A stretch of 64,000 bases of DNA. Source: Tsukamurella ocularis (GTDB taxonomy: Bacteria > Actinomycetota > Actinomycetes > Mycobacteriales > Mycobacteriaceae). The DNA lies in NCBI RefSeq assembly GCF_024807615.1, contig NZ_JANUCJ010000003.1:868001-932000 (forward strand), given 5' to 3'. Shown one piece after another: positions 31,109 to 55,430 of this stretch; the stretch's first letter is position 1; each line of letters opens with the position of its first letter. The translations under genes and the position numbers were made by a program. The notes beneath the pieces were generated by a model. It was not told the origin of the DNA and searched no databases. It worked only from the letters and a program-made list of their open reading frames with translations.

Positions 31109-31738
31109 CTACCGCCCGCGGGCCGAACCGCTCCCCCGCTTCGCCCGGTCGAGCGTCGCGAGGGACTTCTTCGCCGCGGCGAGCTCGGCCTGCAGCGCCG
31201 CGACGCGATCCGCGGCGGCGTCGCGGGCGGCGGAGAGCACCTCGTCGACCGTGGCCAGCGCCTCCTTGTCGGCGAGGCCGGCCAGCGCCTTGTGCACCGC
31301 CGGCAACGAGATCTCCTGCGCGCCCGCGGGCTTCTGCGCGTTTCGCGTCACCTTGAGCGCAGCCGTGTTGTCGGCACCGACGTACACCGTGATCGCGACC
31401 GACCGAGCAGCCCGCGCGGATGCCGGGACGCCTGCCGGCTTCGCCGGGGCGGCCTTCGCCGGGGCAGCCTTGGCGGCTGCGGGCTTAGGGGCGCGCTTGA
31501 CCGGCTTCGGCTGCTTGGTGGCACGCAGTTCCCGTGCCTCGTAGGGCAACTGGTCGTCGACGCCGGTCGGCTTGACGGTGACGACGACGCCGTCGACCGC
31601 GACCACCCGGGCGGACGCGCCGGCGGCCAGCCCGAGGCTGGGTACGCCCTCGATGAGGTAGACCAGCGGATTCTTGCCCTCGGCGAGCGCCGTGGCGTAG
31701 CGCCCGAGGTCCTCGGAGGTCAGGGTCTGCTCGGCCAT
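31109..31738 (-). CDS. DUF6319-like protein with Lys/Ala/Pro-rich centre
   Basis: 209 aa cytoplasmic protein of unknown function. The N-terminal 75 residues are a compact domain (SEDLGRYATALAEGKNPLVY). Residues 76-115 are a basic Ala/Lys/Pro-rich linker reminiscent of nucleic-acid-associated proteins. The C-terminus (150-209) is a predicted coiled coil (AALQAELAAAKKSLATLDRAKR). The ATG shares one base with the kinase stop (TGATG), so translation is coupled to the receptor kinase. Assignment to DUF6319 is by general resemblance only. Confidence 0.72.
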   Translation of the reverse strand: MAEQTLTSEDLGRYATALAEGKNPLVYLIEGVPSLGLAAGASARVVAVDGVVVTVKPTGVDDQLPYEARELRATKQPKPVKRAPKPAAAKAAPAKAAPAKPAGVPASARAARSVAITVYVGADNTAALKVTRNAQKPAGAQEISLPAVHKALAGLADKEALATVDEVLSAARDAAADRVAALQAELAAAKKSLATLDRAKRGSGSARGR

Positions 31739-33801
31739 CACTTGACTCCCTTCACCAGAGCCGGGAGCACCGACTGCTCGATCGTGTCGATCGCGAGCGG
31801 CCCGCCGTAGAGGAGCGCGTCCACGCCGTTCGTCTTGTCCAGGATGATGATCGGCACGCCGTAGGTCAACGACGACGGGACGCCGTCGAAGCCGCCGTTG
31901 CCGCCCGCGGCGTCGGTGCGCGCGACCACCGTCCGGTCCACCTGGCTCGAATTCACGGCCTTGTAGATGTCCCCGGACGCCAGGGGCAGCCACGATCGAG
32001 TCCCGTCGACCGGCGTCTGCGTGGCGAAGCCGAGCTGCCCCAGGAGCTGGAGCGCGTTCGCCGAGCTGCCGGCGAGCTTCGTCGCCGTGCCGTCGAAGTG
32101 AACGATGTCGATCTTCTTGCCCGCGAACTCCGGGTGCGCGGAGCGCAGCGCGGTGATGCGGCCCTCGTAGGTCTTTTTCACTGCCTCCGCGCGGTCCTTC
32201 GCGCCGAGCGCCTCCGCGATGAACGCCAGCTGCTGCTGCCAGGTCCACCCGGCCTTGCCCTCCGTGGAGACCGCGATCGCGCGGCCACCCGCGAGCGACT
32301 TGAGGTCCTTGACCTTCTCGGACGCATCCGGGTCGGTGTCCAGGATCAGGTCCGGTTTCGCCTTGTCGATCACGGACGTGTCCGGGTTGGTCGAGGTGCC
32401 GGCGCTCGGAACGCCCGACAGCGCGGAGACCCAGGCGGGCAGCTCCGACTTCGGGCCGTTCGCCCCCGCGACCACCTCGAAGCCCAAGGCGGAAACCAGT
32501 TCCGCATCGCCCGCTCCCAGCGCGACGATCCGCTGCGGCCGGTCGCTGAGCTCCGTCGTGCCATTGACGTCCGTCACCGTGCGGGCGCTCCACGCGTCCA
32601 AGGCCGGTCGGCCGCCGTCGTTGCCACCGCCGCTGATCAGAACGATGCCCAGGACCACCGCCAGCACCACGACGAGCGCGGCCGCGCCACCGATCAGCAG
32701 CTTCCTCCGACTCGACGACGTCCTCTCCGCCCCGCCGAGCACGGGCATCGACGGAGAGCTCGGCCCCGTCGGAACGCCCGGTCCCCGCGGCCCGACGGGG
32801 CCGAGCAGCCCCGTCGGCGCGCCGGGCGGCACGCCCGGCCCACCGGGAACCGTCGACATCGAGCCCGGCTGGTTGTACCCGGTCGCGAGCGCCGGGTTCG
32901 ATGGCGTCCCCTGCCAGTTCACGCCCTGCGGCGCGGTGGGCGGCGCCATACCCGCGGCGCCCGACATCCGGCGCGAGGCGGCGGCCAGGGCATCGGAGAA
33001 CTCACCGGCGGTGGTGAACCGGTCCGCGGGGTTCTTCGCCATGGCGCGGCCGAGCACGTGGTCGACCTCCGGCGAGAGGTCTGGCCGCTTGAGTCGGACA
33101 CTGGGTGGATTCTGGCTGATGTGCGCCAGCATCAGCTGGCCCGAGATGGTGGTGGTGAAGGGCGGCGCGCCGGTGAGCAGGACGACCGCGGCACACGCCA
33201 GCGAGTAGACATCGGCACGATGGTCGACGGGGTGCCCGAGCATCGCCTCGGGGGCGGTGTACGCCAACGTGCCGACGACGGTGCCCGCCTGCGTGTTCTG
33301 CCCGACCTCAGTCTGGGCGGCACCGATTCCGAAGTCCGCGAGCTTCACCTGCTCGCCGCGGCGGCCGCGGTCGACGAGGAAATTGGCGGGCTTGACGTCG
33401 CGGTGCAGAATGCCGTGCTGGTGGGCGTAGTCGAGGGCGTCCGCGACTTGTTCGAGCACAGCGACGGTGCGGTCCAGGCTGAACGCGCCCTCCCGGTGCA
33501 CGGTCTCGGCGAGGTTTCCTCCCTCGACGAGCTCCATCGCGATCCACAGGTGCCCATCGGACTCGCCACGGTCGTAGACGTCCACGATGTGCGGATGCTT
33601 GAGGCCGGCGATGAGGTCCGCCTCGCGGTCGAACCGCGCCCGCACCGAAGGATCGGCTGAGAGCTGAGTCTGCAGCACCTTCAGCGCGACGGACCGGGGC
33701 AGCGTCCGGTGCCGCACGCGGTACACCGTGCCCATGCCTCCGGTACCGAGCACCGACTCGATCACGTAGCCCGCGATCGACTCACCGGGTTCCGACGCCA
33801 C
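31738..33801 (-). CDS. Transmembrane Ser/Thr protein kinase with an extracytoplasmic siderophore-binding-protein domain
   Basis: 687 aa. The PknB-type kinase domain (about 10-270) is complete: glycine loop LGTGGMGTVYRV, Lys41, the catalytic loop HRD135VKPANF and D156FG. A Pro/Gly-rich juxtamembrane stretch (275-360) is followed by one membrane helix at about 368-390. Outside, residues 400-687 form a Peripla_BP_2 (FecB/BtuF-type) fold, with DRPQRIVALGAGDAELVSAL at its start. Such domains normally bind iron-siderophores, haem or cobalamin for ABC import. GTG start with GGAGGTGA upstream, and a possible -10 TAGATT at 33839-33844. It lies directly after eccE of the ESX locus. A ligand-sensing receptor kinase is inferred. 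Confidence 0.92.
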   Translation of the reverse strand: MASEPGESIAGYVIESVLGTGGMGTVYRVRHRTLPRSVALKVLQTQLSADPSVRARFDREADLIAGLKHPHIVDVYDRGESDGHLWIAMELVEGGNLAETVHREGAFSLDRTVAVLEQVADALDYAHQHGILHRDVKPANFLVDRGRRGEQVKLADFGIGAAQTEVGQNTQAGTVVGTLAYTAPEAMLGHPVDHRADVYSLACAAVVLLTGAPPFTTTISGQLMLAHISQNPPSVRLKRPDLSPEVDHVLGRAMAKNPADRFTTAGEFSDALAAASRRMSGAAGMAPPTAPQGVNWQGTPSNPALATGYNQPGSMSTVPGGPGVPPGAPTGLLGPVGPRGPGVPTGPSSPSMPVLGGAERTSSSRRKLLIGGAAALVVVLAVVLGIVLISGGGNDGGRPALDAWSARTVTDVNGTTELSDRPQRIVALGAGDAELVSALGFEVVAGANGPKSELPAWVSALSGVPSAGTSTNPDTSVIDKAKPDLILDTDPDASEKVKDLKSLAGGRAIAVSTEGKAGWTWQQQLAFIAEALGAKDRAEAVKKTYEGRITALRSAHPEFAGKKIDIVHFDGTATKLAGSSANALQLLGQLGFATQTPVDGTRSWLPLASGDIYKAVNSSQVDRTVVARTDAAGGNGGFDGVPSSLTYGVPIIILDKTNGVDALLYGGPLAIDTIEQSVLPALVKGVK

Positions 33802-33867: not shown

Positions 33868-36030
33868 TTAACGTGAGGTTGGCGGCTCGTCGGAAGGCTC
33901 GCGTTCGCCCGTCTTTCCCCATCGAGGCGCGCTCGGCGGCTGTACCGGACGGCGCCGCGGGGTCCGGTCGTCCTGGCCCTGCGAGGGCCGCACCCAGCGG
34001 TCTCCGCCCTGCTTGCGCTGAGCGCCGGTGCCCCTCTCGTAGGGCGGCGGGGGCAGCGGCCGCACCGGGCGGGTCGGCCGCTGCGGCGGTACCGGAGGCG
34101 GCGCCTGGTGCGAGGGGACGGGCTGTTGCGGTGCGCCGTGAGCTCCCGGAGCCGGGGCACCCGGGGCGTGCGCGGCGGGCACGGGGTACGGCGAGCCCGT
34201 GCCCCGCGGCGGGACCGGCGGCTGCGCGTGCCGTCCGGCCGGCGGTGCGGGCACCCGCGGCGGAGGAAGTGCCTGCGCAGCCGCCGACGGCGGCAGCGTG
34301 GCCGCCCCCGGGGCCAGACGCGGCGGCGCGGGCACCTGACGCGGCAGGCGCTGCGCCGGCTGCTGCGGTGCGACGGCCGCGATCGGCTGCGCCTGCACGT
34401 CGCAGTAGCGCAGCTCCTCGTCGGTCGGGTTGAGGACGACGTCGAACGGGGCGCGGCGGCCGATCCGCACCCGCACCGCAGACGGCGAGACCTGCTCGAC
34501 GACGAGGTCTGCGTTCGCCCGCTCCGGGGCGCTGCCGGGCGCCCGCAGGGTGAGCATGGTGCGCTCGGGTACGGCGTCGGCGGGGGCACCGTCGAAAACG
34601 GTGATGTCGGCCGGGCGGCCCCCGGGGCCGTCGGCGATCCGGAATCGCGCCTGGTCCGCCAGGGTCGCGGCGAGCGTGGCCCACTGGGCAGGGCGGTCGG
34701 TGTGCACAGCGACGGACGCGCCGGCGCCGACGGAGCGGAGCAGCACGAGTTGCAGCGGGATCAGCTCAGTCGCGAACTCGACGACGAGGGTCTCGGGGAC
34801 CGGCGAACCGTCGAACAGGGGCAGTGCCACCGCGTCGGTCCCGGAGACGCCCCAGACGGGACCCGCGGGGCCGACGGGGATCTCCACTGCTCCGAGGCCG
34901 TCCAGGGGCGCGGAGGGCAGGTCGACGACGCTCGATCCTCCGCCCGGCAGCGTGCCGCGGGCGAGCTCCATCTGACGGCCCGGCATCGGCACGAGCGCAT
35001 CGTCGAGGTTGTCGACGATCGGTACGGCGGTGTCGTAGCGGACGAGCCCGCTGATCTCCACGGGCGCCTGCGCATCGGCCCTGCGCATCCGCAGTACGAC
35101 GGAGGTGCTGTCGCTGTCGAGACCCCACCACCGGTCGAGCTTCTGGGTGGAGGTGCGGACCGGGTCGATCAGGTAGGTGGTCGCGAACTCGGCGCCGTGC
35201 TCGATGTTCTGCCAGGTCTCGGTGCCACCGACGAGATCCGCGCCGAAGGTCATGCGTGAGTCCAGGCGGGCGAGCTCCGCGGCCGGCAGCACGCGGGCCC
35301 GGATCAGGCGCTCCTGCAGCCGCTGCTCGAGCCGCCGGGTCGCGGCCATGAGGGCCTTGGGGCCGGCCGTGCGCGACGGTCCGCGCCGCACGATCCCCGC
35401 CAGGTTGCGGCGGGTGTTCACGCGCAGGACCAGCCACGTGGACCGCTCGGCCATCGCCGCGTAGAAGCGGACGCCCTGCGAATAGGAGGCTCGGTAGGCG
35501 GGACCGGGCGGCACGCGGCGGCCGACGGAGGCCACGTCGATGTCCACGTCCAGGCCGTACTGCGTCATCATCGTCGCGAGCAGGTCCAGCGGCACCGTCT
35601 CCGCGGCGAAAGCGCGGCCCTCGCGCAGGCGGGTCTCCGCCGCATCGGCGGTGAGCTCGATCGCCGAGACCAGCTCGAAGCCGTCGCCCTGCCGCACGCC
35701 GACGCCGTCGACGTCGATCACCCGGCCGGGGATGCCCCCGGTCGCGCGGCGCCGACGACGCAGGTACCGCGCGCGGGCGCCGATCTTCTCGCTGAGCACG
35801 GTGCCGTGCACCGAGACGAAGGCGACGAGGGCGCCCAGCACGATGAGCACGATCACGGACCACAGTGGCCAAGCGCCGCCGACGAGCGCGAACAGGCTCG
35901 CCGAGAGGACGGCCCAGACCAGCGCGCGGCGCAGCGAGATCCGGATGCCGACGGGCCGCCGCAGCCGCGCGACTGCGGGGTGCGTCGGGAGCTCGGCGAC
36001 CGCCGGCCCCGGCGTCACGGTCTCCGTCAT
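33868..36030 (-). CDS. eccE: ESX type VII secretion component EccE
   Basis: 720 aa, inner-membrane core component. Two adjacent membrane helices (about 35-75) are followed by the conserved cytoplasmic EccE domain (80-440: SYSQGVRFYAAMAERSTWLVLRVN, FGADLVGGTETW). The C-terminal 180 residues are Pro/Ala-rich and probably disordered, longer than in mycobacterial EccE. The ATG overlaps the mycosin stop (TGATG) and has GGAGG upstream. EccE sits at the periphery of the EccB-EccC-EccD pore. It is the last core gene of the locus. Confidence 0.9.
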   Translation of the reverse strand: MTETVTPGPAVAELPTHPAVARLRRPVGIRISLRRALVWAVLSASLFALVGGAWPLWSVIVLIVLGALVAFVSVHGTVLSEKIGARARYLRRRRRATGGIPGRVIDVDGVGVRQGDGFELVSAIELTADAAETRLREGRAFAAETVPLDLLATMMTQYGLDVDIDVASVGRRVPPGPAYRASYSQGVRFYAAMAERSTWLVLRVNTRRNLAGIVRRGPSRTAGPKALMAATRRLEQRLQERLIRARVLPAAELARLDSRMTFGADLVGGTETWQNIEHGAEFATTYLIDPVRTSTQKLDRWWGLDSDSTSVVLRMRRADAQAPVEISGLVRYDTAVPIVDNLDDALVPMPGRQMELARGTLPGGGSSVVDLPSAPLDGLGAVEIPVGPAGPVWGVSGTDAVALPLFDGSPVPETLVVEFATELIPLQLVLLRSVGAGASVAVHTDRPAQWATLAATLADQARFRIADGPGGRPADITVFDGAPADAVPERTMLTLRAPGSAPERANADLVVEQVSPSAVRVRIGRRAPFDVVLNPTDEELRYCDVQAQPIAAVAPQQPAQRLPRQVPAPPRLAPGAATLPPSAAAQALPPPRVPAPPAGRHAQPPVPPRGTGSPYPVPAAHAPGAPAPGAHGAPQQPVPSHQAPPPVPPQRPTRPVRPLPPPPYERGTGAQRKQGGDRWVRPSQGQDDRTPRRRPVQPPSAPRWGKTGEREPSDEPPTSR

Positions 36031-37451
36031 CACGACCTCCGCTTCCGGCCGGGTCGCGTCAGCGCGACCACGCCGCCGATCACCAGCAGCACTACCGCGC
36101 CGGCGCCTCCCACGATCGCCGCCGTCCGCCGCGGCCGCGTATCGGGATCGGGCGGGGGCGGCGGGACCAACAGCTTCTCCACCGACTGCGGGTCGATGTC
36201 CGCGTCGATGTCGGGCACCTTCGCGGTCAGGGCGGCCACCGGATCGATCAGCCCGCGGCCCACCTTGTTGTCAGTGCCACGGCCGGGCGCGTGCGCCGTG
36301 GCCACGAGCCGCGCGGCCGCCTGCATCGCCGACAGCTGCGGGTACCGCGCGCGCACCAACGCCGCCGCGCCCGCGGCGTAGGCCGCAGCGAACTCCGGCC
36401 CAGCGAAGGGCACCAGGTTCCGCTCGACAGGAGCACCGTTCACCACGCCATCGCCGCCACGCGAGCTCAGCGAGACGATGCCCGCGCCCGGCGCGGCCAC
36501 GTCGAGCCACGGGCCGTTCAGCGATCCGGTCAGCGGCGTACCCTCCGCGGTAGTGGCGCCCACCGAGAGCACCTGCCCGTCGAACCAGTTCGGCGTCGCG
36601 ACGGTCGTCACCTGCCGCCAGCCGCGCGGGTCGTCGGGCTGGCCGGGATCCGGGTCGGGATTGGCCTTGCAGTCGTTCGACCCGACGGTGCCGCCCTGGC
36701 GGTCCGTCGCGCCCGCGCCGACCACGACGAGCGCGTCCTTGGCGCGCAGCGCGTAGGCGACGGCGCCGCCGATCTCGCGCTGGCGGAACTGGTTGTCAGC
36801 TGCCATACACACGGGCTCGGGCACAACGATCACCTTGGCGCCGCGGTTGGCGGCGCGCACGATGGCGCGGGCGATGCTGCGGGCGTTGACCGCGGCGCGG
36901 CCGAGGTTGGGGTCCGCGTCGTCCGCCGGGTTGTTCTGCAGCGAGAAGCCCGCTGAGTCGACGCGGATCGACAGGATCCGCGCGTCCGGGGCGACGCCCA
37001 CGACGCCATCACCCGCCGCGGGCTGCGCGCCGATGATGCCCGCGACCAGCGTGCCCGTGGAGTCGCAGTCCACCAGTCCACGGTCGCCGGCCACCATGTT
37101 GTCGCCGGCGCCGTCGAGCCCGCGGAGGCGGGCCTGGGGACGCACGCCGGTGCTCAGCACCGCGACGGTCACCCCCGCGCCGGTGGAGAACCTGTGCGCC
37201 TCGTCGACCTGCAGCGTGGTGGCCGGCGCGGGTGCAGCAGCGAGGTTGGAGTTCGGCAGGACGCCGGGCTCCACGCACCGCGGATTGTTGTTGCGCAGCG
37301 GGCGCTCCGGGCCGTCGGTGTCGGGCGGCGCGCCGCCGATGTCGGCGACGGGCGGCACCACCGCACCGGAAGGGGCCGGAGCCCAGCCGCCGGCGGCGAC
37401 CACGGTGAGGGTCGCGGCCGCTGCGGCGACCGCCTTCGGGATTCGGCGCAC
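36030..37451 (-). CDS. mycP: Mycosin MycP homologue lacking its catalytic triad (pseudoprotease)
   Basis: 473 aa subtilisin-fold protein with a signal peptide (1-30), a long N-terminal extension wrapping the domain, and a C-terminal membrane anchor (about 440-465). This is the mycosin architecture, and four cysteines remain for its disulphides. The active site is not intact. Asp is Ser100 (VAVLSTGVRP), His is Thr132 (DCDSTGTLVAGI), Ser is Glu353 (AGPEFAAAY), and the oxyanion-hole Asn is Ala248 (GAGATD). Mycobacterial MycP has a protease-independent role in stabilising the ESX membrane complex, which is presumably all that remains here. The gene is intact between eccD (7-base gap) and eccE (overlap). 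Confidence 0.93.
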   Translation of the reverse strand: MRRIPKAVAAAAATLTVVAAGGWAPAPSGAVVPPVADIGGAPPDTDGPERPLRNNNPRCVEPGVLPNSNLAAAPAPATTLQVDEAHRFSTGAGVTVAVLSTGVRPQARLRGLDGAGDNMVAGDRGLVDCDSTGTLVAGIIGAQPAAGDGVVGVAPDARILSIRVDSAGFSLQNNPADDADPNLGRAAVNARSIARAIVRAANRGAKVIVVPEPVCMAADNQFRQREIGGAVAYALRAKDALVVVGAGATDRQGGTVGSNDCKANPDPDPGQPDDPRGWRQVTTVATPNWFDGQVLSVGATTAEGTPLTGSLNGPWLDVAAPGAGIVSLSSRGGDGVVNGAPVERNLVPFAGPEFAAAYAAGAAALVRARYPQLSAMQAAARLVATAHAPGRGTDNKVGRGLIDPVAALTAKVPDIDADIDPQSVEKLLVPPPPPDPDTRPRRTAAIVGGAGAVVLLVIGGVVALTRPGRKRRS

Positions 37452-42176: not shown

Positions 42177-42482
42177 CTAGACGACGTAGCCGGTGAACAG
42201 GCCACCGGCGTCGCCGTCGGTGCTGGTGATGAGGCCGCCGTTACGGCCGAGCGCCTCGGCGACTGCCTCGAGCTTCTGCTGCTCGGCGTTGCAGACGGCG
42301 ATGAGCTCCTCCATGTGGGCGCTCGCCTTGGTGGTCGTGTCGCCGGCGTTCGCAGCGCGATAGGCCTCAGCGGTGGTGCGGACGAACTTGATGTTGGCGA
42401 GGGTCGTCGCGGCCACGTCGTGGGTCTTCGCGGTACCGGCGGCGTGCGCTCCGGTGTTGAGTTCGTAGATCTGCGGGGGCAT
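42177..42482 (-). CDS. Esx-family partner protein without W-x-G (EsxB/EsxG-like)
   Basis: 101 aa, two predicted helices (residues 10-45 and 53-82) with the turn at AANAGDTTT, where no tryptophan is present. The C-terminal tail GDAGGLFTGYVV resembles the STYTGF tail of EsxG. A classical YxxxD/E signal is not obvious. GGAGG lies before the ATG. By position (after PPE, before the W-x-G protein) it is the EsxB/EsxG member of the heterodimer. Confidence 0.82.
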   Translation of the reverse strand: MPPQIYELNTGAHAAGTAKTHDVAATTLANIKFVRTTAEAYRAANAGDTTTKASAHMEELIAVCNAEQQKLEAVAEALGRNGGLITSTDGDAGGLFTGYVV

Positions 42483-42535: not shown

Positions 42536-43912
42536 TCAGCGCCCCTCCCCACTCGACGGGACGTCGACGGGAACGGACTCGTACTCGGGCACCGAGTCCT
42601 GGTAGATGGGTATCGCGGCCGTATCCGGCACGACGATGCGCTCCCGTTGCTTGCCCTTCGACCGCGCGACGGGCGCACTGGTCCCGGTCGGGAGGATCGG
42701 GCGCAGCGGCTCTGCCGCCACGCGCGGAACCGGCGGGGGCGGTGGCGCCACCGCGAGACCGTCCGTCGACCAGTTCGCCGGCGCGACCACCTGCGGCAGC
42801 GTGCCCGTACCGGGCTCGACGCGCAACGCGGACGCCGACCGCTGCGCCTGCTCACCGCGGGACATCCGCTCCAGGGTGGGCGAGCCCGGGCGCGCGCCGA
42901 AGTAGCCGACGGACCCGGTCCGGTTCTCGGGATTGACGCCGGAGAGCAGGGCACTCATCGGTTGGTAGACCACGCCACCGCCGGTGCTCGCGGTCCCCAC
43001 GCTGACGCCGGTCTGCAGGGCCTGCCCGCCACCGGACATGGCCACGCCGACCACGCCGCCGGCCACTCCGGCCGCGGTGCCGCCGGCCCCGCCGAGCTGC
43101 TGCACCAGACTCTGGCCGAGCTGCTGGCCTGTGGTGGGGCGGATGGCGCTGTTCTCGCGCGACTGGGATCCCGCCGTCGCCGCGTTGGAGACCGCCTGCT
43201 CGAACCGCTGAGCGTTCACGAGCAGGGTCTGACCGAGCTTCGTGGTGGAGAGCACGCCGCCGGCGGCGCGCATCCAGAGCATGCTGGCGACGGCCTGGGC
43301 ACCCTGTGCGGCGAGCGTCATCTTGGTGACCACGGCGTCGCCGACCGACGCGGCCCCCGCGGCGGCCGCGGGGATCGGGACGCCGATGGACGTGGCCATG
43401 GGCTTCGGCGGGACGAAGGGCTCGAAGGTCATGTTCGCCGTGGAGTTCGCGAGGTAGGTCAGCATCATCGCGGCGTTCTGCGCCCACATCGCGGCGTACT
43501 GCGCCTCGTTCGCGGCGATCGCTCCCGTGTTCACCCCGAGGAAGTTCGTCGCATTGAGCACCGCGTTGGTGATGTGGTTCTGCGCGATCTCGGGCAACTG
43601 CGCCATGCCCGCGAGGGCCGCCGAATAGTCGGCGGCCTGCTTCGTGTGGCGGGTCGAAGCCAGGAGCGCCTGCGTGCGCAGCGCCTCGTTGTGTGCGAGG
43701 TAGATCGCGACGTTGCGCGTCATCAGTGCTGTCTCCGGCGCCTGCCAGGACGCGGCGAGCCGCGGCAGCAGCGACTGGAGGAACACCGACCGCGCACTGA
43801 CGGAGGCAGCGACCGAGGCCCAGGCCGCCGCCGCAGCGGTCGCCGGTGCAGGGCCCGCTCCCGACATCAGGCGCCCCACGTTGACCTCGGGGGGAAGCGC
43901 TGGGAAAGTCAC
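42536..43912 (-). CDS. PPE-family protein
   Basis: 458 aa. The N-terminal 170 residues are a PPE domain: FPALPPEVN at residues 3-11, the W-x-P-like turn SWQAPETALM, and the PPE helix NFLGVNTGAIAANEAQYAAMWAQNAAMM, close to the mycobacterial NFFGINT...MWAQDA pattern. The C-terminal 280 residues are Ala/Gly/Pro-rich with no tandem repeats. GTG start. It lies 13 bases after the PE gene; the two should form a PE-PPE dimer carried by EspG to EccA/EccC. Confidence 0.9.
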   Translation of the reverse strand: MTFPALPPEVNVGRLMSGAGPAPATAAAAAWASVAASVSARSVFLQSLLPRLAASWQAPETALMTRNVAIYLAHNEALRTQALLASTRHTKQAADYSAALAGMAQLPEIAQNHITNAVLNATNFLGVNTGAIAANEAQYAAMWAQNAAMMLTYLANSTANMTFEPFVPPKPMATSIGVPIPAAAAGAASVGDAVVTKMTLAAQGAQAVASMLWMRAAGGVLSTTKLGQTLLVNAQRFEQAVSNAATAGSQSRENSAIRPTTGQQLGQSLVQQLGGAGGTAAGVAGGVVGVAMSGGGQALQTGVSVGTASTGGGVVYQPMSALLSGVNPENRTGSVGYFGARPGSPTLERMSRGEQAQRSASALRVEPGTGTLPQVVAPANWSTDGLAVAPPPPPVPRVAAEPLRPILPTGTSAPVARSKGKQRERIVVPDTAAIPIYQDSVPEYESVPVDVPSSGEGR

Positions 43913-48516: not shown

Positions 48517-50114
48517 TACTTCCCCTTCGGGTCGAACTTCGCGACGACGGGGTCCTGTGCGCCACCGTCGTGCTTGATGGACGCGCTCGCCTGCGAGAGC
48601 GTGGGGCCCTGCGCGAACAGGCTGATGATCGTCCACGGCGCGGGCACCGGGTTGCTCAGGCCCAGTGCCTTCGCGGACGAGCCCGGGTCGTTCGAGCCCT
48701 GATCATCGATGCCGTACCGGATGCCGGTGTCCGCGATCCAGAACTCGCCGCTGTGCTCGCGCGAGTCCTTGGCGGAGCCGGTGGCGTAGACGTACCGTCC
48801 GCTGTTCGCCGGCAGGTACACGTCGTCGGCGATGGTGCCCGCCGAGCCGGGTGCGCCGATCAACGCGATCCGGGCGGCGCTCTGCTGGGAGGTCAGCGGC
48901 AGCGTCCCGGCGACCAGGACCTTCTGCTCCGCGGTCGGCGCATCCCCGTCGTGCGACCAGGTCATACAGGTCACGGGATCGCTCGTCGCGTCCTCGATCC
49001 GTACCTTGCCCGTCGGGAAGTGGTCGACGGCAATCCGCCCGCCCACCTTGGGCCACTGGTTCGCCTTCGACGCCTCGGTCTCGACGACGCCGCTCTTGAC
49101 GGGCGAGACGGTCTGCAGGACCGCCGCCGCGGTCTGGCTGACCTGCTGGATGCCGTCGGCGGCCACGACGTAGTAGGTCCACCCGCCGTCGACGGTGGCG
49201 ACACGCAGCGTAGTGCCGACGAGTAGCTTCTCGGTGTTTGGGAAACGCACTGGCTTACCGAGATCCGTGATCTGCGGGACGTCGATCGGTTCCCGCGCCG
49301 CGAGCGCGTTGAACAGGCCGGGCGACATCGGGATGACGCGCTGGCCGATGCCGATGCCCAGCGCCTCGCGGATCGCGGAATTGCCGAGGTCGAGCCGCGA
49401 GCGGGCCACGATCCCGTCGTCGGAGTAGACGAGCCAGGTCTGGTTGTCGAAGGCGACGACGCGGGCGCGGTCGCCGGTCAGCTCGTCGGTGCCGTCGGCG
49501 GGCGCGAGGGCGCCGCCGATGATCGTGACCTTGACCGCGGAGGTGGCAGTGGTCGGCAGCCCCGTCGACGGGTCGAGCGGCACGGCCGAGCCGGTGGCCG
49601 TGCTGTCGCAGACTGCCCACTGCGATATCCGACTGGTCGAATTGCGGATCACGGTGGGGGCGTACGGGATGCCCACCATCGGGCCGCGAGGCAGCTTCTC
49701 GATCTCCGCTGACTTCGCCAGCACAGGCTTGGCGGGCGAGCCGATGATGAGCTGGCCTGAGACCACGTTGGGGATCGGGCTGAGCGCGTCGCCGACCTTG
49801 ACGTACAGCGCGCCGGTCTGGCTGTCCTGGATGATCTCGCCGTCACCGACCTTGCCCGCGGGGAAGATCACGGCGCCGATCACGCAGCCGAGGACGACGA
49901 CCAGACCGACGGCGAGCGCCATGTACAGGGGCGAGCCCTGGAACTTCTTGACGTCGTCGATCCAGCGCGTGTCACGGCGCACCAGCGCCTCCTCGTTGCG
50001 CCGCTGCAGGTAGGCCTCGCCCGATTTCTGGTACTTCGAGGTCAGTCGGAACCCTCGGACCCGCTCCTGCAGGCCCGATTTCGGGTTCGACGGATCCGGA
50101 GTGATCTCAGCCAT
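48516..50114 (-). CDS. eccB: ESX type VII secretion component EccB
   Basis: 532 aa. A short cytoplasmic N-terminus with the conserved SKYQKSGEAYLQRRNEEALV-type segment, one membrane helix (about 63-85) and a large periplasmic domain made of R1-R4 repeats, with paired cysteines (WAVCDSTATG and VTCMTW). EccB forms the periplasmic face of the ESX pore. Start ATG 50114 overlaps the end of eccA by eight bases. It appears intact. Confidence 0.94.
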   Translation of the reverse strand: MAEITPDPSNPKSGLQERVRGFRLTSKYQKSGEAYLQRRNEEALVRRDTRWIDDVKKFQGSPLYMALAVGLVVVLGCVIGAVIFPAGKVGDGEIIQDSQTGALYVKVGDALSPIPNVVSGQLIIGSPAKPVLAKSAEIEKLPRGPMVGIPYAPTVIRNSTSRISQWAVCDSTATGSAVPLDPSTGLPTTATSAVKVTIIGGALAPADGTDELTGDRARVVAFDNQTWLVYSDDGIVARSRLDLGNSAIREALGIGIGQRVIPMSPGLFNALAAREPIDVPQITDLGKPVRFPNTEKLLVGTTLRVATVDGGWTYYVVAADGIQQVSQTAAAVLQTVSPVKSGVVETEASKANQWPKVGGRIAVDHFPTGKVRIEDATSDPVTCMTWSHDGDAPTAEQKVLVAGTLPLTSQQSAARIALIGAPGSAGTIADDVYLPANSGRYVYATGSAKDSREHSGEFWIADTGIRYGIDDQGSNDPGSSAKALGLSNPVPAPWTIISLFAQGPTLSQASASIKHDGGAQDPVVAKFDPKGK

Positions 50115-52041
50115 TCGATTCCTCGTGCCAGCTCGTCTCCAAGAGATGCCATTGCGACCACGGGAAGTTCGGCGACACCCGCAGAGTCTCCTCGTAGGCC
50201 AGGCGCACGTCCTCGAACTCGAGCGTGCGCAGCAGCGTCCGCTTCTCCTCCGACGGGAGCGCCGACCGGTCGATCGCGCTGACCCGGAAGTCGCGGAAGC
50301 CCCGCGCGGAAGAGATCACGGTGCGCACGAAGCGGGCGTTCGACATCAGGTCGATGCCGGAACACAGGCGGCCCTTGAGATCGAGGGCGCTGACCTCGGC
50401 GAGCCGCTTGTTGTGCTCCTCCAGGTATCCGCGCACGCCGGCGCCGAGGTTCTCCCCGCTCTTGGCCGCGACAGACTCGGCGATCTCCACCAGCTCCTCC
50501 GCCGTGAACGAGCTGAACGAGATCCGCGTCGGGAAGCGCAGCGGGAGGCCGGCGTTCACCTGGAGCAGGCGGTTCATGTCATCGTCGTAACCCGCGAGCA
50601 CCACGACCACCTTGTCACGCAGAGGCTTATCGCCCTCGTTCTCGATCCGGGCCAGCAGCGCCTCGAGCGCCTCGCGGCCGAAACGGGAGGCCTGATCCTC
50701 GCCGTCTCCGGCGACGAGGCCGTACGCCTCATCGAGGAAGAACAGGCCACCGCGAGACTCGTCGACGAGCTTGTTGGTGCGGATGCCTGCCTGGCCCACG
50801 TAGCCCGTCATCATGTCGCTGGGTTGATGCTCGTAGACCTCGGGCTTGGCGATCACGCCCAGGCCGTAGTACAGCTTTGCGAGGATCCGCACGCCCGTCG
50901 TCTTACCGGTGCCCGGCGGACCGGTGATGATCGCGGAGAGACGCATCTCCTCCTCGCTGTACTCCTCACCGAGCTCCTCGCTGAGTTCCTTGCGCTCGCG
51001 GTCCATCTCGACCTTCGAGGCGAGGCGGCGGATCTGCGACTTCACATCCGGACTGCCGACGAGGGCGTCGAGCTCGCGCCACGCGTCGGCGAGGACCACG
51101 TCGCGCTGCCGGTCGAGGCTCTCCTGCTCGATCTCCTGCGCCGTCGTTCCCGTGGTCGGGTCCCACGGATCGGTGCGGGTGTTCATCGACTGCGCGGTGA
51201 CCACCTCGAGGGAGCCGCCCGCGGCAGCGTGGTCGAGGTCCGGGCGCGAGGAGATCCAGGCGCGGGCGTCACGCAGCAGCTTGGCGGCGCCGTCCTCGTC
51301 TCCCGTCGCCCGGAGCGCATAGGCCTGGGTCACCAAGAGGCTCGCCTGCACCAGTTTGAAGTCTTCCGAGGCGAGCGCGGTCTTGGTCGCGGAGAGCGCT
51401 TGGTGGGCGTCGCCCGTGCCGACGAGGGCGCGCGCGGTCAGCGCGGTGACACCGAGCTGCCAGAAGCGGACGGCACCGTCGGACTCGGCGGACACCCAGA
51501 GGGGCTCGCGGCTGTCGGCCACCGTCGAGAGCACCTCGGGCCAGCGACACGCGAGACCGAGCAGGCAGATCCACAGGTAACGCAGGTAGTTCCGCTGAGC
51601 AGGCGAGTCCGCACTCACCTCGCGCTGTAGCCTCGTCAGTTCCTCGGCGGCCTCGGTAAGCAGGCCGGCCTGCGCCAGGATCACCGCGGCGCCCGCGCGC
51701 GCGTAGATCACGTCGGTGACGGGCATGCCCAGCTCGACGACCCCCATCTGCACGGGGATCTTCAGTCCGAGAGCGCCTTCGGCGGGGTCGACGACCATTC
51801 CGTTTCGGCGCAGTTCTACGCCGAAGTTGCGGGCCGAGTTCAGCAGTCCGCGGGCCGCAGCGGGGTCGCTGAGCTGCGATCGGTCGACGGCCATCAAGCC
51901 GATCCACGCATCGCACATCGTGGGGTCGGCCTCGACGGCAAGGCGGAAGGCCTGGGCCGGTTCGCGGGTGTCGGTTCGGGCCGCGAGCGATCGCAGCCCG
52001 AGCGAGAAGTACCGCTGGGCAGTGGGATTGGAGGTCGTCAT
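50107..52041 (-). CDS. eccA: ESX type VII secretion AAA+ ATPase EccA
   Basis: 644 aa cytoplasmic. An N-terminal TPR-like helical domain (1-290) is followed by a CbxX/CfqX-type AAA+ domain with Walker A GPPGTGKTT (Lys380) and Walker B GGLFFLDEAYGL. EccA is thought to separate substrates such as PE-PPE dimers from EspG before export. Its presence is typical of ESX-1, -2, -3 and -5 and absent from ESX-4, so this is a PE/PPE-type system. ATGA overlap with the upstream accessory gene. Confidence 0.94.
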   Translation of the reverse strand: MTTSNPTAQRYFSLGLRSLAARTDTREPAQAFRLAVEADPTMCDAWIGLMAVDRSQLSDPAAARGLLNSARNFGVELRRNGMVVDPAEGALGLKIPVQMGVVELGMPVTDVIYARAGAAVILAQAGLLTEAAEELTRLQREVSADSPAQRNYLRYLWICLLGLACRWPEVLSTVADSREPLWVSAESDGAVRFWQLGVTALTARALVGTGDAHQALSATKTALASEDFKLVQASLLVTQAYALRATGDEDGAAKLLRDARAWISSRPDLDHAAAGGSLEVVTAQSMNTRTDPWDPTTGTTAQEIEQESLDRQRDVVLADAWRELDALVGSPDVKSQIRRLASKVEMDRERKELSEELGEEYSEEEMRLSAIITGPPGTGKTTGVRILAKLYYGLGVIAKPEVYEHQPSDMMTGYVGQAGIRTNKLVDESRGGLFFLDEAYGLVAGDGEDQASRFGREALEALLARIENEGDKPLRDKVVVVLAGYDDDMNRLLQVNAGLPLRFPTRISFSSFTAEELVEIAESVAAKSGENLGAGVRGYLEEHNKRLAEVSALDLKGRLCSGIDLMSNARFVRTVISSARGFRDFRVSAIDRSALPSEEKRTLLRTLEFEDVRLAYEETLRVSPNFPWSQWHLLETSWHEESNG

Positions 52042-55000
52042 CGTGCTTGTTCGGAGTCCTGATCCTGGCTCGAGAGGAACCGTGCGTAGGTCCAGGCGTA
52101 CACCGCCGACTCGATGTCGTGGTACGCCGCGGCGAGGGTCGCGACGAGGATCGCCCGCTCCAGCATCCGGTCGCGCAGGCGCGCCGCGTCCGGCGCGGGC
52201 GCCGTGAGGTCCTCGGCCGAGGCCGGCGTCCGGTCCAGGACCAGCGCATCGCCGAGAGCACGCTCGTCGGCGTGCAGCTGCTCGAGGACCGCGGGCGGGA
52301 CGTCGTCGCGCTCATCGAGGAAGCAGCGGGCGTCGATGCGGGCGGCCTCGATCCCGATCGCGTGCTCGGGCGCGATCGGCTGCGTCTCCAGGTCCCGGAT
52401 CAACGCCCGTGCCTGCCGCTCGGCCTGCTCGCGATCGAGCGACCGGATGTGCTGCAGGCGAGCAGGTGAGACGGTGGCCTCGAACCGGCTGCGACCACCG
52501 GGGAGCACCGCGCCGGGCCGGAGCACGCCGACGACGTTCTCCTCGCCCACGACCTCGGCGTACGCGCGGCTCGGGTGCGTGGTCGCGACCGCGGTGAGCG
52601 TGTAGCCGTCCTGCTCGGCGTACTCGATGAGCTGGCGCACCGGGTCGTCGATCGACGCCCAGCGGTAGCCCGCCGGCATGTTCCAGAGCACACGGACACC
52701 AGCGGGGATCACGACTCCGGGCGGCAGCCAACCCGCGTCCGACGTGGTGACGGCCATGATCGTCTCCGCGTCCTTGACCAGAAGACCTGCGGCCCAGTGC
52801 AGTCCCGACTCGGGAGTGTGCGGGCCGCCGCGCAGCGACCCCAGGATGGACGCGACCGCGTCGTGCACCTGTTGCACGACCGGCGATACCTTCTCCCGCA
52901 GCACCAGCGGCTCTATACGGCCGAGGATGGCAGGTCCGGTAGCGAGCACCGGAGCGGGCTTGGCGGGTGCCGTGAGCTCCTCCGCCTGCTCCTCCCCGAG
53001 CGCGGAACGGGTGGGCTCCGCGGGTGTCGCGGACTCGCCCTCCGGGGGCACGACGGGGTCCTTCGCCGCCACGAACGCGGCGGGCGCCCTGCGGGCGGGT
53101 TCGACCTTGGTGGCGTTCGCAGCCTTGAGCAGGTCCGAGAACTTGACGGGACCGGACTTCCGCACCGGCCTCGCCGCCGCAGCAGCGAGTGACCCGACCG
53201 GATCGGCGGGCGCCGCAGCCTCCTCGGCGGGCGCGGCTTCCTCCGGTGCGGCCGCGACCGGCACGGCCCTGGAGCTTCCGCCGTCGTCCTGCTGCTGCTC
53301 ACTGACGGTGTCGCCCGTCGCGACGGAGCCCTCCTCCGGGCCCTCGCCGACGGCCTCGTCGGTGTCCGCCTCGTCGGCGCCGGTCTCGTCGGTGTCTGCT
53401 TCGTCGACGTCAGCCTCGCCGGCGTCGGCCTCGTCGGCCTCGCCGGCCTCGTCGGCGTCGTCGGCGTCGTCGGTGCCGGCCTCGTCGATGCCGGCCTCGT
53501 CGGTGTCCGCCTCGTCGGCGCCGGTCTCGTCGGTGTCTGCTTCGTCGACGTCAGCCTCGCCGGCGTCGGCCTCGTCGGCCTCGCCGGCCTCGTCGGCGTC
53601 GTCGGCGTCGTCGGTGCCGGCCTCGTCGATGCCGGCCTCGTCGGCGTCCGCCTCGTCGATGCCGGCCTCGTCGGTGTCCGCCTCGTCGGTGTCGGCCTCG
53701 TCGGCGTCAGCCTCGTCACCGGCCGGGCCCTCGTCGGTGCGGTCATCGATGTCCGGCTCGACGTCGGCGATCACGTCTTCGTCCTGCTCTTCCGACGCCA
53801 AGAGGTCGTCCGCCTCGGCGTCCAGCTCGTCGGCGAAGTCGACTTCGGCATCAGCCGCCGCATCGCCCTCCTCCAGGGCACTGTCGTCGAGGTCGTCGAG
53901 GTCGTCCGCACCGGGATCGTCGGCATTGTTGAGCTCGCCTGCGAGGGGATCGTCGGCATCGGTTGTCTCGGGGGGAGCGTCGCCACCACCACCGGGAACG
54001 CGTCCGAACGAGAGGAAGTCGCCGTCCATCGCATCGGCACGGGTGTCCTCGTGTTCGGGCAGCGGGCCGTCGATCGCCCCGGACAGTGTCATCGGGGTGC
54101 CGACACCGGCACCCAGGGCCTCGCTCGCTTCGCTGGCCACGATCTCGGCGGGCGTTGCAGGGAGGGGCAGGAACTGGGTCGGCGCGACGACGGGGATCGG
54201 ACCGCTACTGGGCCCCTGCACGGCGCTCTCGCCCGCACCGGGCGTGCGACCGAGCGCTAGGAAACCGTTGACCAGGGGCTGCGGCACGACGGGGACCGCA
54301 GCATCGCCAGCGGACACGCTCGCCGACGGTGCAGGCCCCAGGCCGAGGAAGCCGTTCGCGATCACCGGCGCATCGATGTCGGCGGACTCCTCGATCCCCT
54401 CCTCAAGAGGCGCAGCCAGCAGGGCGGCGTCCTCGACCGGGTTCTCCACGACGGGCTCTCCGGCGATGGCCTCGTCCGGAACGGACGCCGTGGCCCCGGC
54501 GTGGGGAACTGCCCCCGTGGGAGTGCGGCCGAAGGACATGAATCCGGGGTCCATCGTGGCCTCGTCGCCGGAGTCGGCGAAGGCATCCAGCGCTGCGGCC
54601 GCGGCGTTGTTCGGGGCTGCAACCTCACGCTCGGCGGACACCTGGCCGTGTGCGGATTCATGACCGTTCGTCCCAGCGTGACCGTTGACGGCCCCCAGTC
54701 CGTTGACCGCCTCGTGACCGTTCGCGACCTCGTGGCCCGTGGCAGCGTCGTGACCGTTCGCGACCTCATGACCGTTCGCGACGGCAAGGCTGTCCTGGCC
54801 GGCTCGGGTGTTGCGGATCGCGTACCCGCTGCGGGCGTGTCCGTTCCGGGCGACACGGCCGTTGCGCTCTGTGGCCTCCGCGCTGGCGCCGGGTACCCGG
54901 CCGAAGGCCATGAACCCGCTGACCAGGGCGGCCGCGGGCTTCTTCGTCGAACTCGTGGTCTCCGGCGTGACCATCTTTTCGGCCACCTCAGCGGCCCGTG

Positions 55001-55430
55001 CCCGGGCATTCGCGATCAGCTCGGCGATCCGGTCGGCGGGGTCGATGCCAGCCTGCGCGGACTGGAGCTGCGCCGCCTCGATCTCGGCCTCGACCTGGTA
55101 CACGATCTCCGACTGCTCGAGATTCACCTGCTGCAGACTGCGGGCGAGTTCACCGAGCGCGTGCGAGACGTGGACCAGCGACTCGCCCACGCGGACGATG
55201 CCGATGAAGCTCTGCGCCCACTTGCCCGTCTCGGACTCCAGGAACTCGGAGACGTCGACCTCTGCCAGCTGCGCGGTGGCGGTAGTGCCCTCGCTGGCGA
55301 CGCGGAACGCGTACGACGAGGCCTGGGCGGCGGACAGGGCCCGCGACGCGAGGTCATCGGGCGTCACCTCGTCTTCCCAGATTCCTTCCAGGAGGACGTC
55401 GGCGTGGGGGGTATCAGGGCGATCGATCAC
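52038..55430 (-). CDS. Large ESX-associated accessory/substrate-like protein with acidic repeats
   Basis: 1130 aa, no named family recognised. Residues 1-165 are a long helical region with a single Trp (ETGKWAQSF) that resembles the hairpin of secreted Esp/PE-like proteins. Residues 165-700 are disordered. They hold five copies of a GF[ML]xxGRxPGA-like motif (near 172, 296, 360, 389 and 471), a stretch of N-G-H repeats (about 215-262) and a Glu/Asp/Ala low-complexity block (about 556-697) containing a perfect tandem duplication. Residues 745-1130 form a folded C-terminal domain. Its tail overlaps eccA (ATGA). GTG start with AGGTG upstream. A secreted substrate or docking platform is inferred. 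Confidence 0.85.
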   Translation of the reverse strand: MIDRPDTPHADVLLEGIWEDEVTPDDLASRALSAAQASSYAFRVASEGTTATAQLAEVDVSEFLESETGKWAQSFIGIVRVGESLVHVSHALGELARSLQQVNLEQSEIVYQVEAEIEAAQLQSAQAGIDPADRIAELIANARARAAEVAEKMVTPETTSSTKKPAAALVSGFMAFGRVPGASAEATERNGRVARNGHARSGYAIRNTRAGQDSLAVANGHEVANGHDAATGHEVANGHEAVNGLGAVNGHAGTNGHESAHGQVSAEREVAAPNNAAAAALDAFADSGDEATMDPGFMSFGRTPTGAVPHAGATASVPDEAIAGEPVVENPVEDAALLAAPLEEGIEESADIDAPVIANGFLGLGPAPSASVSAGDAAVPVVPQPLVNGFLALGRTPGAGESAVQGPSSGPIPVVAPTQFLPLPATPAEIVASEASEALGAGVGTPMTLSGAIDGPLPEHEDTRADAMDGDFLSFGRVPGGGGDAPPETTDADDPLAGELNNADDPGADDLDDLDDSALEEGDAAADAEVDFADELDAEADDLLASEEQDEDVIADVEPDIDDRTDEGPAGDEADADEADTDEADTDEAGIDEADADEAGIDEAGTDDADDADEAGEADEADAGEADVDEADTDETGADEADTDEAGIDEAGTDDADDADEAGEADEADAGEADVDEADTDETGADEADTDEAVGEGPEEGSVATGDTVSEQQQDDGGSSRAVPVAAAPEEAAPAEEAAAPADPVGSLAAAAARPVRKSGPVKFSDLLKAANATKVEPARRAPAAFVAAKDPVVPPEGESATPAEPTRSALGEEQAEELTAPAKPAPVLATGPAILGRIEPLVLREKVSPVVQQVHDAVASILGSLRGGPHTPESGLHWAAGLLVKDAETIMAVTTSDAGWLPPGVVIPAGVRVLWNMPAGYRWASIDDPVRQLIEYAEQDGYTLTAVATTHPSRAYAEVVGEENVVGVLRPGAVLPGGRSRFEATVSPARLQHIRSLDREQAERQARALIRDLETQPIAPEHAIGIEAARIDARCFLDERDDVPPAVLEQLHADERALGDALVLDRTPASAEDLTAPAPDAARLRDRMLERAILVATLAAAYHDIESAVYAWTYARFLSSQDQDSEQAR
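53354..53644 (-). repeat. 141-bp perfect tandem duplication inside the acidic region
   Basis: The stretch from 53354 repeats identically 141 bases later and continues to 53644, about 2.06 copies. Each unit encodes 47 residues of Asp/Glu/Ala-rich sequence. It lies in a wider coding tract (53340-53760) made of CGTCGGCCT-like short repeats. The exact identity implies a recent duplication or active slippage. Confidence 0.9.
53984..54917 (-). repeat. Five dispersed coding copies of a GF[ML]xxGRxPGA motif
   Basis: Copies at 54885-54917 (GFMAFGRVPGA), 54515-54545 (GFMSFGRTPT), 54327-54353 (GFLGLGPAP), 54234-54266 (GFLALGRTPGA) and 53984-54019 (DFLSFGRVPGG). They are separated by unrelated acidic linker, so the motif itself is what is kept. 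Confidence 0.8.

What the first reader, a model, noticed from the sequence alone, without database searches (positions are those of the whole stretch)
36030..37451. ESX mycosin that has lost every catalytic residue
Seen directly: at the conserved blocks the Asp, His and Ser positions are Ser100, Thr132 and Glu353, and the oxyanion Asn is Ala248, while the signal peptide, fold motifs, cysteines and membrane anchor remain and the frame is intact. Four independent losses without frame damage mean selection for the fold, not decay. MycP in mycobacteria is needed for ESX complex stability apart from proteolysis. This locus would be a natural separation of those two roles, and substrates such as EspB-type proteins would not be trimmed.
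Basis: partly seen in the sequence, partly recalled or inferred. Interest (0 to 1): 0.88.

Follow-up and report, generated by a model that had tools for sequence, protein, structure and literature searches.

The report
Protease-dead mycosin kept across Tsukamurella
A protein that normally works both as a cutting enzyme and as a structural cap in a bacterial secretion machine has lost its cutting site throughout most of the genus Tsukamurella, yet evolution still preserves it tightly, so here nature seems to have kept only the structural job.

Summary
Window 36030-37451 (-) encodes a mycosin (TIGR03921, 307 bits, over cut-off) in a complete ESX locus of a Tsukamurella. At the subtilase Asp, His, oxyanion-Asn and Ser positions stand Ser100, Thr132, Ala248 and Glu353. 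Only one His is invariant, outside the active-site segments. Of 16 genomes held for the genus, 13 carry this mycosin: S/T/E in 13 of 13, A248 in 12. It is under strong purifying selection (median omega 0.032; intact ESX-4-type mycosin of the genus 0.051). The window's genome shows no other mycosin, though a second T7SS runs into a contig end. EspB, the one mycosin substrate named in a 2016 paper, was not found in 4 of 4 Tsukamurella genomes searched. By parsimony the losses arose once, on the Tsukamurella stem; the Nocardia-like sister mycosins keep the triad. It is not unique: a 139-row tree needs 7 changes of triad status, with a second full loss in Segniliparus. Best reading: a pseudoprotease kept as cap and clamp of the ESX membrane complex. 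That role is inferred from published M. marinum mutants and an ESX-5 structure, not tested here. The AlphaFold model failed (pLDDT 42).

The parts
36030..37451 (-). mycP homologue, protease-dead mycosin (473 aa)
   Evidence: TIGR03921 307 bits over cut-off 278.75; S100/T132/A248/E353; median omega 0.032
37152..37154 (-). codon of Ser100, at the catalytic Asp position
   Evidence: coordinates follow from the 36030-37451 frame
37056..37058 (-). codon of Thr132, at the catalytic His position
36708..36710 (-). codon of Ala248, at the oxyanion Asn position; closely followed by 8 residues absent from MycP1 (some other mycosins, such as ESX-3-type ones, also have residues there)
36393..36395 (-). codon of Glu353, at the nucleophile Ser position
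33868..36033 (-). eccE
   Evidence: TIGR03923 202 bits
37459..39027 (-). eccD
   Evidence: TIGR03920 178 bits
39034..40878 (-). espI-like protein (label recalled, from position and a MinD-like look)
   Evidence: no Pfam or NCBIfam hit; a relative at 33-35% identity in the same position in g23 loci L149-L152
40909..41778 (-). espG
   Evidence: PF14011 136 bits
41845..42147 (-). WXG100 protein (EsxA-like)
   Evidence: TIGR03930 weak, 16.8 bits, under cut-off
42177..42482 (-). second small Esx-like protein
   Evidence: position and size; no family hit
42536..43912 (-). PPE protein
   Evidence: PF00823 129.5 bits
43926..44213 (-). PE protein
   Evidence: PF00934 38.8 bits
44296..48519 (-). eccC (start set by me downstream of the longest ORF start at 48636)
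   Evidence: TIGR03924 694 bits and TIGR03925 480 bits
48516..50114 (-). eccB
   Evidence: PF05108 417.6 bits
50107..52041 (-). eccA
   Evidence: PF21545 98 bits plus AAA

Best explanation
This is a pseudoprotease: the dedicated mycosin of the ancestral-ESX-1-type (ESX-1AN) secretion system of Tsukamurella. It lost the subtilase triad once, on the stem lineage of the genus, and has since been kept as a structural subunit. It would act as mycosins do outside proteolysis: its anchor and protease-fold domain clamp the EccB periplasmic domains and the membrane raft and cap the periplasmic chamber, so that Esx/PE/PPE cargo passes without being cut. Shown here: descent, loss of all triad residues, full-length frames, strong purifying selection, conserved locus, no second recognisable mycosin in this genome. 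Inferred: folding, complex assembly, capping, absence of cleavage, a single origin of the loss.
For: Homology to mycosins over the whole length (307 bits; MycP1 E 1.4e-93). Triad positions substituted in 13 of 13 genomes that carry the gene. Median omega 0.032 over the 40 of 78 pairs with dS between 0.05 and 2, range 0.021-0.079, every used pair rejecting omega 1 (smallest LRT 257); eccD 0.034, eccB 0.030, eccC 0.020, eccE 0.061; intact ESX-4-type mycosin 0.051 (41 of 78 pairs). All 13 frames run 473-478 codons. eccA to eccE found in 11 of 13 loci: the window and 10 others, eccA being cut by the end of the fetched stretch in G013; the other two are G003 (eccA and eccB not found) and G005 (contig end). 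No other mycosin in this genome: 1 match to the protein, 1 over the family cut-off. Literature: protease-dead and pocket-blocked MycP1 and MycP5 of M. marinum still support secretion, and without MycP the complexes are unstable (PMC5082899, passages read); MycP5 trimers cap the EccB5 chamber and hold the complex together (PMC8131196, abstract, passages and section 7 read).
Against: No structure or experiment here; the AlphaFold model was poor (mean pLDDT 42, 9-sequence alignment). One interface residue of MycP5, Trp523, is Ala in Tsukamurella and Tyr in the Nocardia-like sister; EccB5 Trp437 is Phe here (also in EccB3), while Trp469 is kept (residues found by counting along the printed alignment). 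So the contact need not be the same in detail. In G003 (T. paurometabola by its contig length, recalled) eccA and eccB were not found in the fetched stretch and eccC matches over 87%, yet the mycosin is full length, which a pure clamp would not predict for long. Active-site segments are as conserved as in the active paralogue (75% against 77% invariant), more than a mere scaffold may need. The second T7SS of this genome ends at a contig end, so a missed second mycosin cannot be excluded.
Confidence: 0.8

Rival explanations
1. Repurposed pocket: beyond scaffolding, the former active site became a non-catalytic binding or gating site, with Ser100, Thr132 and Glu353 selected in their own right, for example to hold or guide substrates in the lumen.
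For: S100, T132 and E353 invariant in 13 of 13 while their codons vary silently. Active-site segments 75% invariant against 57% for the rest of the domain (random segments reach this in 1.6% of draws), much as in the active paralogue, 77% against 59% (8.0% of draws). In the dead Mycobacterium mycosins the Ser position does vary (Gly, Asp).
Against: These strands are also core strands, so conservation may be structural. No model good enough to see contacts. No ligand known. A248 is Ser in one genome.
Confidence: 0.25
2. Recent decay: a pseudogene on its way out.
For: Catalytic residues lost; in G003 eccA and eccB were not found, as reported for T. paurometabola eccB and eccC (PMC4791881 section 7 read).
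Against: Omega 0.021-0.079 in all 40 used pairs; full-length frames in 13 of 13; rest of the locus similarly constrained.
Confidence: 0.03
3. Still a protease, with relocated or unusual catalytic residues.
For: The family model still scores over its cut-off and names it a serine protease.
Against: Single invariant His (387), outside the active-site segments; single invariant Lys (238); Glu in place of the nucleophile.
Confidence: 0.03
4. An active mycosin from another T7SS works in trans, and the dead copy only docks.
For: 12 of the 13 genomes with the dead copy also have an intact (D, H, N, S) ESX-4-type mycosin.
Against: In the window's own genome none was found; its second T7SS (G000:C1) shows no mycosin, although that locus runs to a contig end. 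Mycosins are reported to be system-specific (title of a cited work only, seen).
Confidence: 0.06

Closest known systems
MycP1 of mycobacterial ESX-1 (solved: 4kb5, 4hvl, 4j94)
   Same: Long alignment, four cysteines, N-terminal extension; the ESX type nearest to ESX-1AN (PMC4791881)
   Different: MycP1 has Asp, His, Asn, Ser and cleaves EspB; this one has Ser, Thr, Ala, Glu and 8 extra residues soon after Ala248, and no EspB_PE match was found in its genome
MycP5 in the ESX-5 membrane complex (7np7)
   Same: Same domain plan; the published example of the capping and clamping role
   Different: Asp, His and Ser intact in MycP5; no long loop 5 here; MycP5 Trp523 is Ala here
Engineered M. marinum MycP1 S354A and MycP5 S461A
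   Same: Nucleophile lost; protein still supports secretion in the experiments
   Different: Those are single laboratory changes; here the full triad is lost in nature and shared by 13 genomes
ESX-1AN mycosins of the Nocardia-like genus g23 (genus inferred)
   Same: Sister group on the tree (support 85/42), same gene order for the genes detected
   Different: Triad D/H/S kept in 35 of 35 distinct ones examined (8, 29, two genomes in both), though the VINIS and GTS motifs are largely altered
Segniliparus mycosin of an ESX-3-type locus (G022, G051)
   Same: Second full triad loss (Gly, Val, Asp, Ala at the four positions); omega 0.051 for the pair (dS 1.9)
   Different: Different residues, different clade, separate event

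Membership tests
T7SS mycosin family (TIGR03921) | Score over the curated cut-off | tested here: met
   307 bits against 278.75
T7SS mycosin family (TIGR03921) | Encoded within an ESX locus with EccB, EccC, EccD, EccE | tested here: met
T7SS mycosin family (TIGR03921) | Four cysteines as in MycP1 | tested here: met
T7SS mycosin family (TIGR03921) | Signal peptide and C-terminal membrane anchor | tested here: inconclusive
   seen by eye only; no predictor was run
Subtilase peptidase, family S8 (as an active serine protease) | Asp-His-Ser catalytic triad | tested here: not met
   Ser, Thr, Glu in 13 of 13
Subtilase peptidase, family S8 (as an active serine protease) | S8 domain by profile | tested here: met
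   PF00082 79.4 bits against 21.8
Subtilase peptidase, family S8 (as an active serine protease) | Subtilisin fold in a model | tested here: inconclusive
   mean pLDDT 42
Subtilase peptidase, family S8 (as an active serine protease) | Proteolytic activity | not testable with these tools
   needs purified protein
ESX-1AN (ancestral ESX-1) cluster | Operon-like order eccA-eccB-eccC-...-espG-espI-eccD-mycP-eccE, as in Nocardia | tested here: met
   Window order, and g23 loci L149-L152 in the same order for the genes detected; PPE was detected in 2 of these 4, PE and the Esx genes in none. PMC4791881 assigns the T. paurometabola cluster by synteny, its phylogeny being inconsistent
ESX membrane-complex scaffold (mycosin role) | Needed for complex stability and secretion | not testable with these tools
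   published for MycP1 and MycP5 only

The most novel reading that the evidence does not exclude
Mycosin catalysis has been shed repeatedly in mycolate-bearing actinobacteria. In Tsukamurella the dead pocket was then rebuilt and frozen (Ser100, Thr132, Glu353) as a non-catalytic substrate-guiding or gating site of the ESX chamber: a new role for the mycosin, not just a lost one.
Probability: 0.25. Interest if true: 0.8.

Novelty: new variant of a known kind. Interest (0 to 1): 0.66.

Why it matters
Why T7SS machines carry a protease that is needed for secretion while its cutting is not has been open since the MycP1 mutants. Here evolution appears to have done the separation experiment: a complete, conserved ESX system whose only recognisable mycosin lacks the subtilase triad. 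That makes the scaffold role testable in a natural background, asks what protease activity is for where it is kept (EspB control in ESX-1?), and shows that a database model names a dead mycosin as a serine protease. I saw no report of naturally dead mycosins in the listings (25 of 216 papers shown); the library lacks most subscription journals.

Tried and rejected
AlphaFold on the window protein with 8 relatives from the search for related loci: mean pLDDT 42, discarded, no fold search made. Relocated triad: rejected on the single invariant His. Pseudogene: rejected on omega. Label ESX-3: my first thought from gene order; replaced by ESX-1AN because of the espI-like gene, the sister group on the tree and PMC4791881. 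The first tree coded L121, L123 and L127 as lacking the N-terminal columns because the extraction cut them; re-reading showed L121 as D/H/N/S and L127 as D/H kept with Ser to Gly, while L123 is cut by its contig end. One search also counted rows with only the oxyanion residue changed as 'dead'; the counts in this report use the triad alone. In one search L125 was miscoded; recoded (8 changes became 7). Rows dropped: L123 and repeats of the same gene from the 139-row tree; pairs with dS outside 0.05-2 from the omega medians (38 of 78 for mycP); 8 of 38 g23 matches and every match beyond its 30 loci were never read. dS is saturated for many pairs, so omega of distant pairs is rough. The ESX-4-type sequences carried about ten residues upstream of the likely start. 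An early draft of this report called the insertion after Ala248 unique to Tsukamurella; one search does not bear that out and it was taken out.
Full report
What was checked first. The ORF at 36030-37451 (-) is open, 473 aa, GTG start. It scores 307 bits against the mycosin model TIGR03921 (cut-off 278.75) and 79 bits against Peptidase_S8. Against solved MycP1 (4kb5_A, E 1.4e-93) the catalytic blocks align plainly and read Ser100, Thr132, Ala248 and Glu353 where MycP1 has Asp, His, Asn and Ser. The four cysteines align too.

Where it lies. The search for related loci placed the gene in Tsukamurella: seven named Tsukamurella loci at 81-96% identity. The locus reads, on the minus strand, eccA, eccB, eccC, PE, PPE, two Esx-like genes, espG, an espI-like gene, eccD, the mycosin and eccE. 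The same order, for the genes detected, is found in four g23 loci (L149-L152). Genus names of G handles are inferred: g23 as Nocardia-like from genome size and PMC4791881, g30 as Mycobacterium, g8 as Segniliparus (below). Newton-Foot et al. (PMC4791881; passages and section 7 read; authors' name recalled) call such clusters ESX-1AN and assign the T. paurometabola one to it by synteny.

Genus-wide and old. Of 16 genomes held for the genus, 13 carry this mycosin. All 13 have Ser, Thr and Glu at the triad positions and 12 have Ala248, with Ser in G005; codons at these positions vary silently. The three others: G009 (83% complete) has only the ESX-4-type mycosin; G010 has two mycosins, both D/H/N/S; G011 gave only weak matches of 41.5 and 30.8 bits. 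On an 85-sequence tree, which included the active-site columns, the 13 form one clade (support 100/100, stem 0.63) beside the g23 mycosins, with modest support for that sister relation (85/42). The g23 ESX-1AN mycosins keep D/H/S in 8 of 8 and 29 of 29, 35 distinct. None of them has the Asn of the VINIS wall motif, 27 of 29 have GAS or GSS for GTS and 4 of 29 have Ser or Asp for the oxyanion Asn (Gly in 2 of 8). So the pocket had perhaps begun to change before the triad was lost on the Tsukamurella stem. That order of events is inference from the tree.

Selection. Pairwise maximum-likelihood codon analysis of the 13 orthologues gave median omega 0.032 for the dead mycosin (40 of 78 pairs with dS 0.05-2; range 0.021-0.079; smallest likelihood ratio against omega 1 is 257). 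Neighbours: eccA 0.021, eccC 0.020, eccB 0.030, eccD 0.034, PPE 0.050, eccE 0.061, espG and espI-like 0.074 (10 to 13 genomes each). The intact ESX-4-type mycosin, from 13 genomes of the genus (G009 in, G000 out): 0.051 (41 of 78 pairs). Active-site segments are 75% invariant against 57% elsewhere in the domain; the active paralogue shows 77% against 59%.

No helper seen in this genome. A protein search of the window's genome finds this mycosin alone; the family model finds it alone over cut-off, plus a 21-bit match with stops that gave no match to three mycosin queries. A second eccC lies at G000:C1, with an eccD and a DUF4185 protein; it is about 37% identical to the ESX-4-type EccC of G008. 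No mycosin is seen there, but the locus runs up to a contig end, so a missing neighbour cannot be ruled out. The EspB_PE family is over cut-off in two g30 genomes, about 1.5 kb from a mycosin gene in each; it has no match in 4 of 4 Tsukamurella genomes and one g23 genome, and one sub-cut-off match (20.7 bits) in another g23 genome.

Not alone. Triad members are also lost in Segniliparus (G022, whose 3,157,527 bp match the S. rotundus type strain of PMC3035277, abstract read; and G051 of the same genus handle): Gly, Val, Asp, Ala at the four positions. A second mycosin of G051 keeps Asp and His but has Gly for Ser. Among the 30 best g30 relatives of L069, L069 included, 5 have Gly or Asp for Ser and 1 has Arg for His (the other matches were not read). 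One named draft, Mycolicibacterium vinylchloridicum, has Gly for Ser. On a 139-row tree built without the columns at and next to the active site, 23 of 139 rows have lost at least one triad member, needing 7 changes by parsimony; Ser loss needs 6; loss of all three needs 2. This was a quick tree with SH-aLRT support only, and the place of the second G051 mycosin is unsure (31; with the other Segniliparus copies at 95/76), so 6 is also possible. Omega of the dead copies is low too: Segniliparus pair 0.051; ten dead g30 pairs 0.023-0.084, against 0.037-0.081 for ten pairs among five intact relatives that I chose.

How it most likely works. Published work shows that MycP1 and MycP5 of M. marinum with a mutated nucleophile or blocked pocket still support secretion, while the complexes are unstable without them (PMC5082899, passages read), and that MycP5 trimers cap and hold the EccB5 chamber (PMC8131196, abstract, passages and section 7 read). 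A commentary (PMC5156307, part 1 of 2 read) sums this up. The simplest account is that Tsukamurella kept that job and dropped the other. Dead MycP1 also raises ESX-1 secretion in that paper, so loss of cutting might have been favoured, or neutral once no EspB-like substrate was there; this is conjecture. Results that sit less well: MycP5 Trp523 of the EccB contact is Ala here and EccB5 Trp437 is Phe, as also in EccB3; in G003 eccA and eccB were not found although its mycosin is full length; and the frozen replacement residues suggest the pocket is not simply free of duty.

Novelty. Searches for mycosin with Tsukamurella, Segniliparus, pseudoenzyme, catalytically inactive, catalytic triad and inactive protease showed no report of naturally dead mycosins (listings; one search listed 25 of 216). 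The library lacks most subscription journals, so this is not proof. I file it as a new variant of a known kind: a mycosin by descent, not a protease by its residues.

Noticed in passing
31738-33801 (-): A Ser/Thr protein kinase fused to a periplasmic-binding-protein domain (PF00069 plus PF01497) directly beyond eccE; matched in the same place in 9 of the 12 other Tsukamurella loci, the remaining 3 stretches ending in or soon after eccE.
   Followed up: partly
52038-55430 (-): An 1130-aa protein with long acidic repeats just upstream of eccA; only a sub-cut-off DUF5632 match (24.8 bits against 25).
   Followed up: no
L076 (G000:C1:1207001-1225668): A second T7SS in the window's genome (EccC, EccD, DUF4185 protein, and by eye a small Esx-like ORF), with EccC about 37% identical to that of the ESX-4-type locus of other Tsukamurella; it ends at a contig end, without a visible mycosin.
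   Followed up: partly
L144 (G003:C1:327700-347600): In this genome (contig length 4,379,918, T. paurometabola by recall) eccA and eccB were not found and eccC matches over 87%; PMC4791881 reports a transposition that disrupted eccC and deleted eccB in T. paurometabola; the mycosin stays full length.
   Followed up: partly
L192-L220 and L057-L068 (g23, Nocardia-like by inference): ESX-1AN mycosins with intact triad but no Asn in the VINIS wall motif, mostly GAS or GSS for GTS, and a variable oxyanion position: possibly weakened proteases.
   Followed up: partly
L158 / L127 (G051:C2:620001-624500): A second ESX locus in Segniliparus (G051) whose mycosin keeps Asp and His but has Gly for Ser and Asp at the oxyanion position.
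   Followed up: partly
L069, L163-L166, L182 (g30, Mycobacterium by inference): Mycosins with Gly or Asp for the nucleophile (5) or Arg for His (1) among close relatives with an intact triad.
   Followed up: partly
L016:10001-11608 (Mycolicibacterium vinylchloridicum): A MycP5-like mycosin with a long loop insert and Gly for the nucleophile Ser; single draft genome.
   Followed up: no
7np7 (solved MycP5), alignment: MycP5 itself has Asp, not Asn, at the oxyanion position, so loss of that Asn alone does not mark a dead mycosin.
   Followed up: yes
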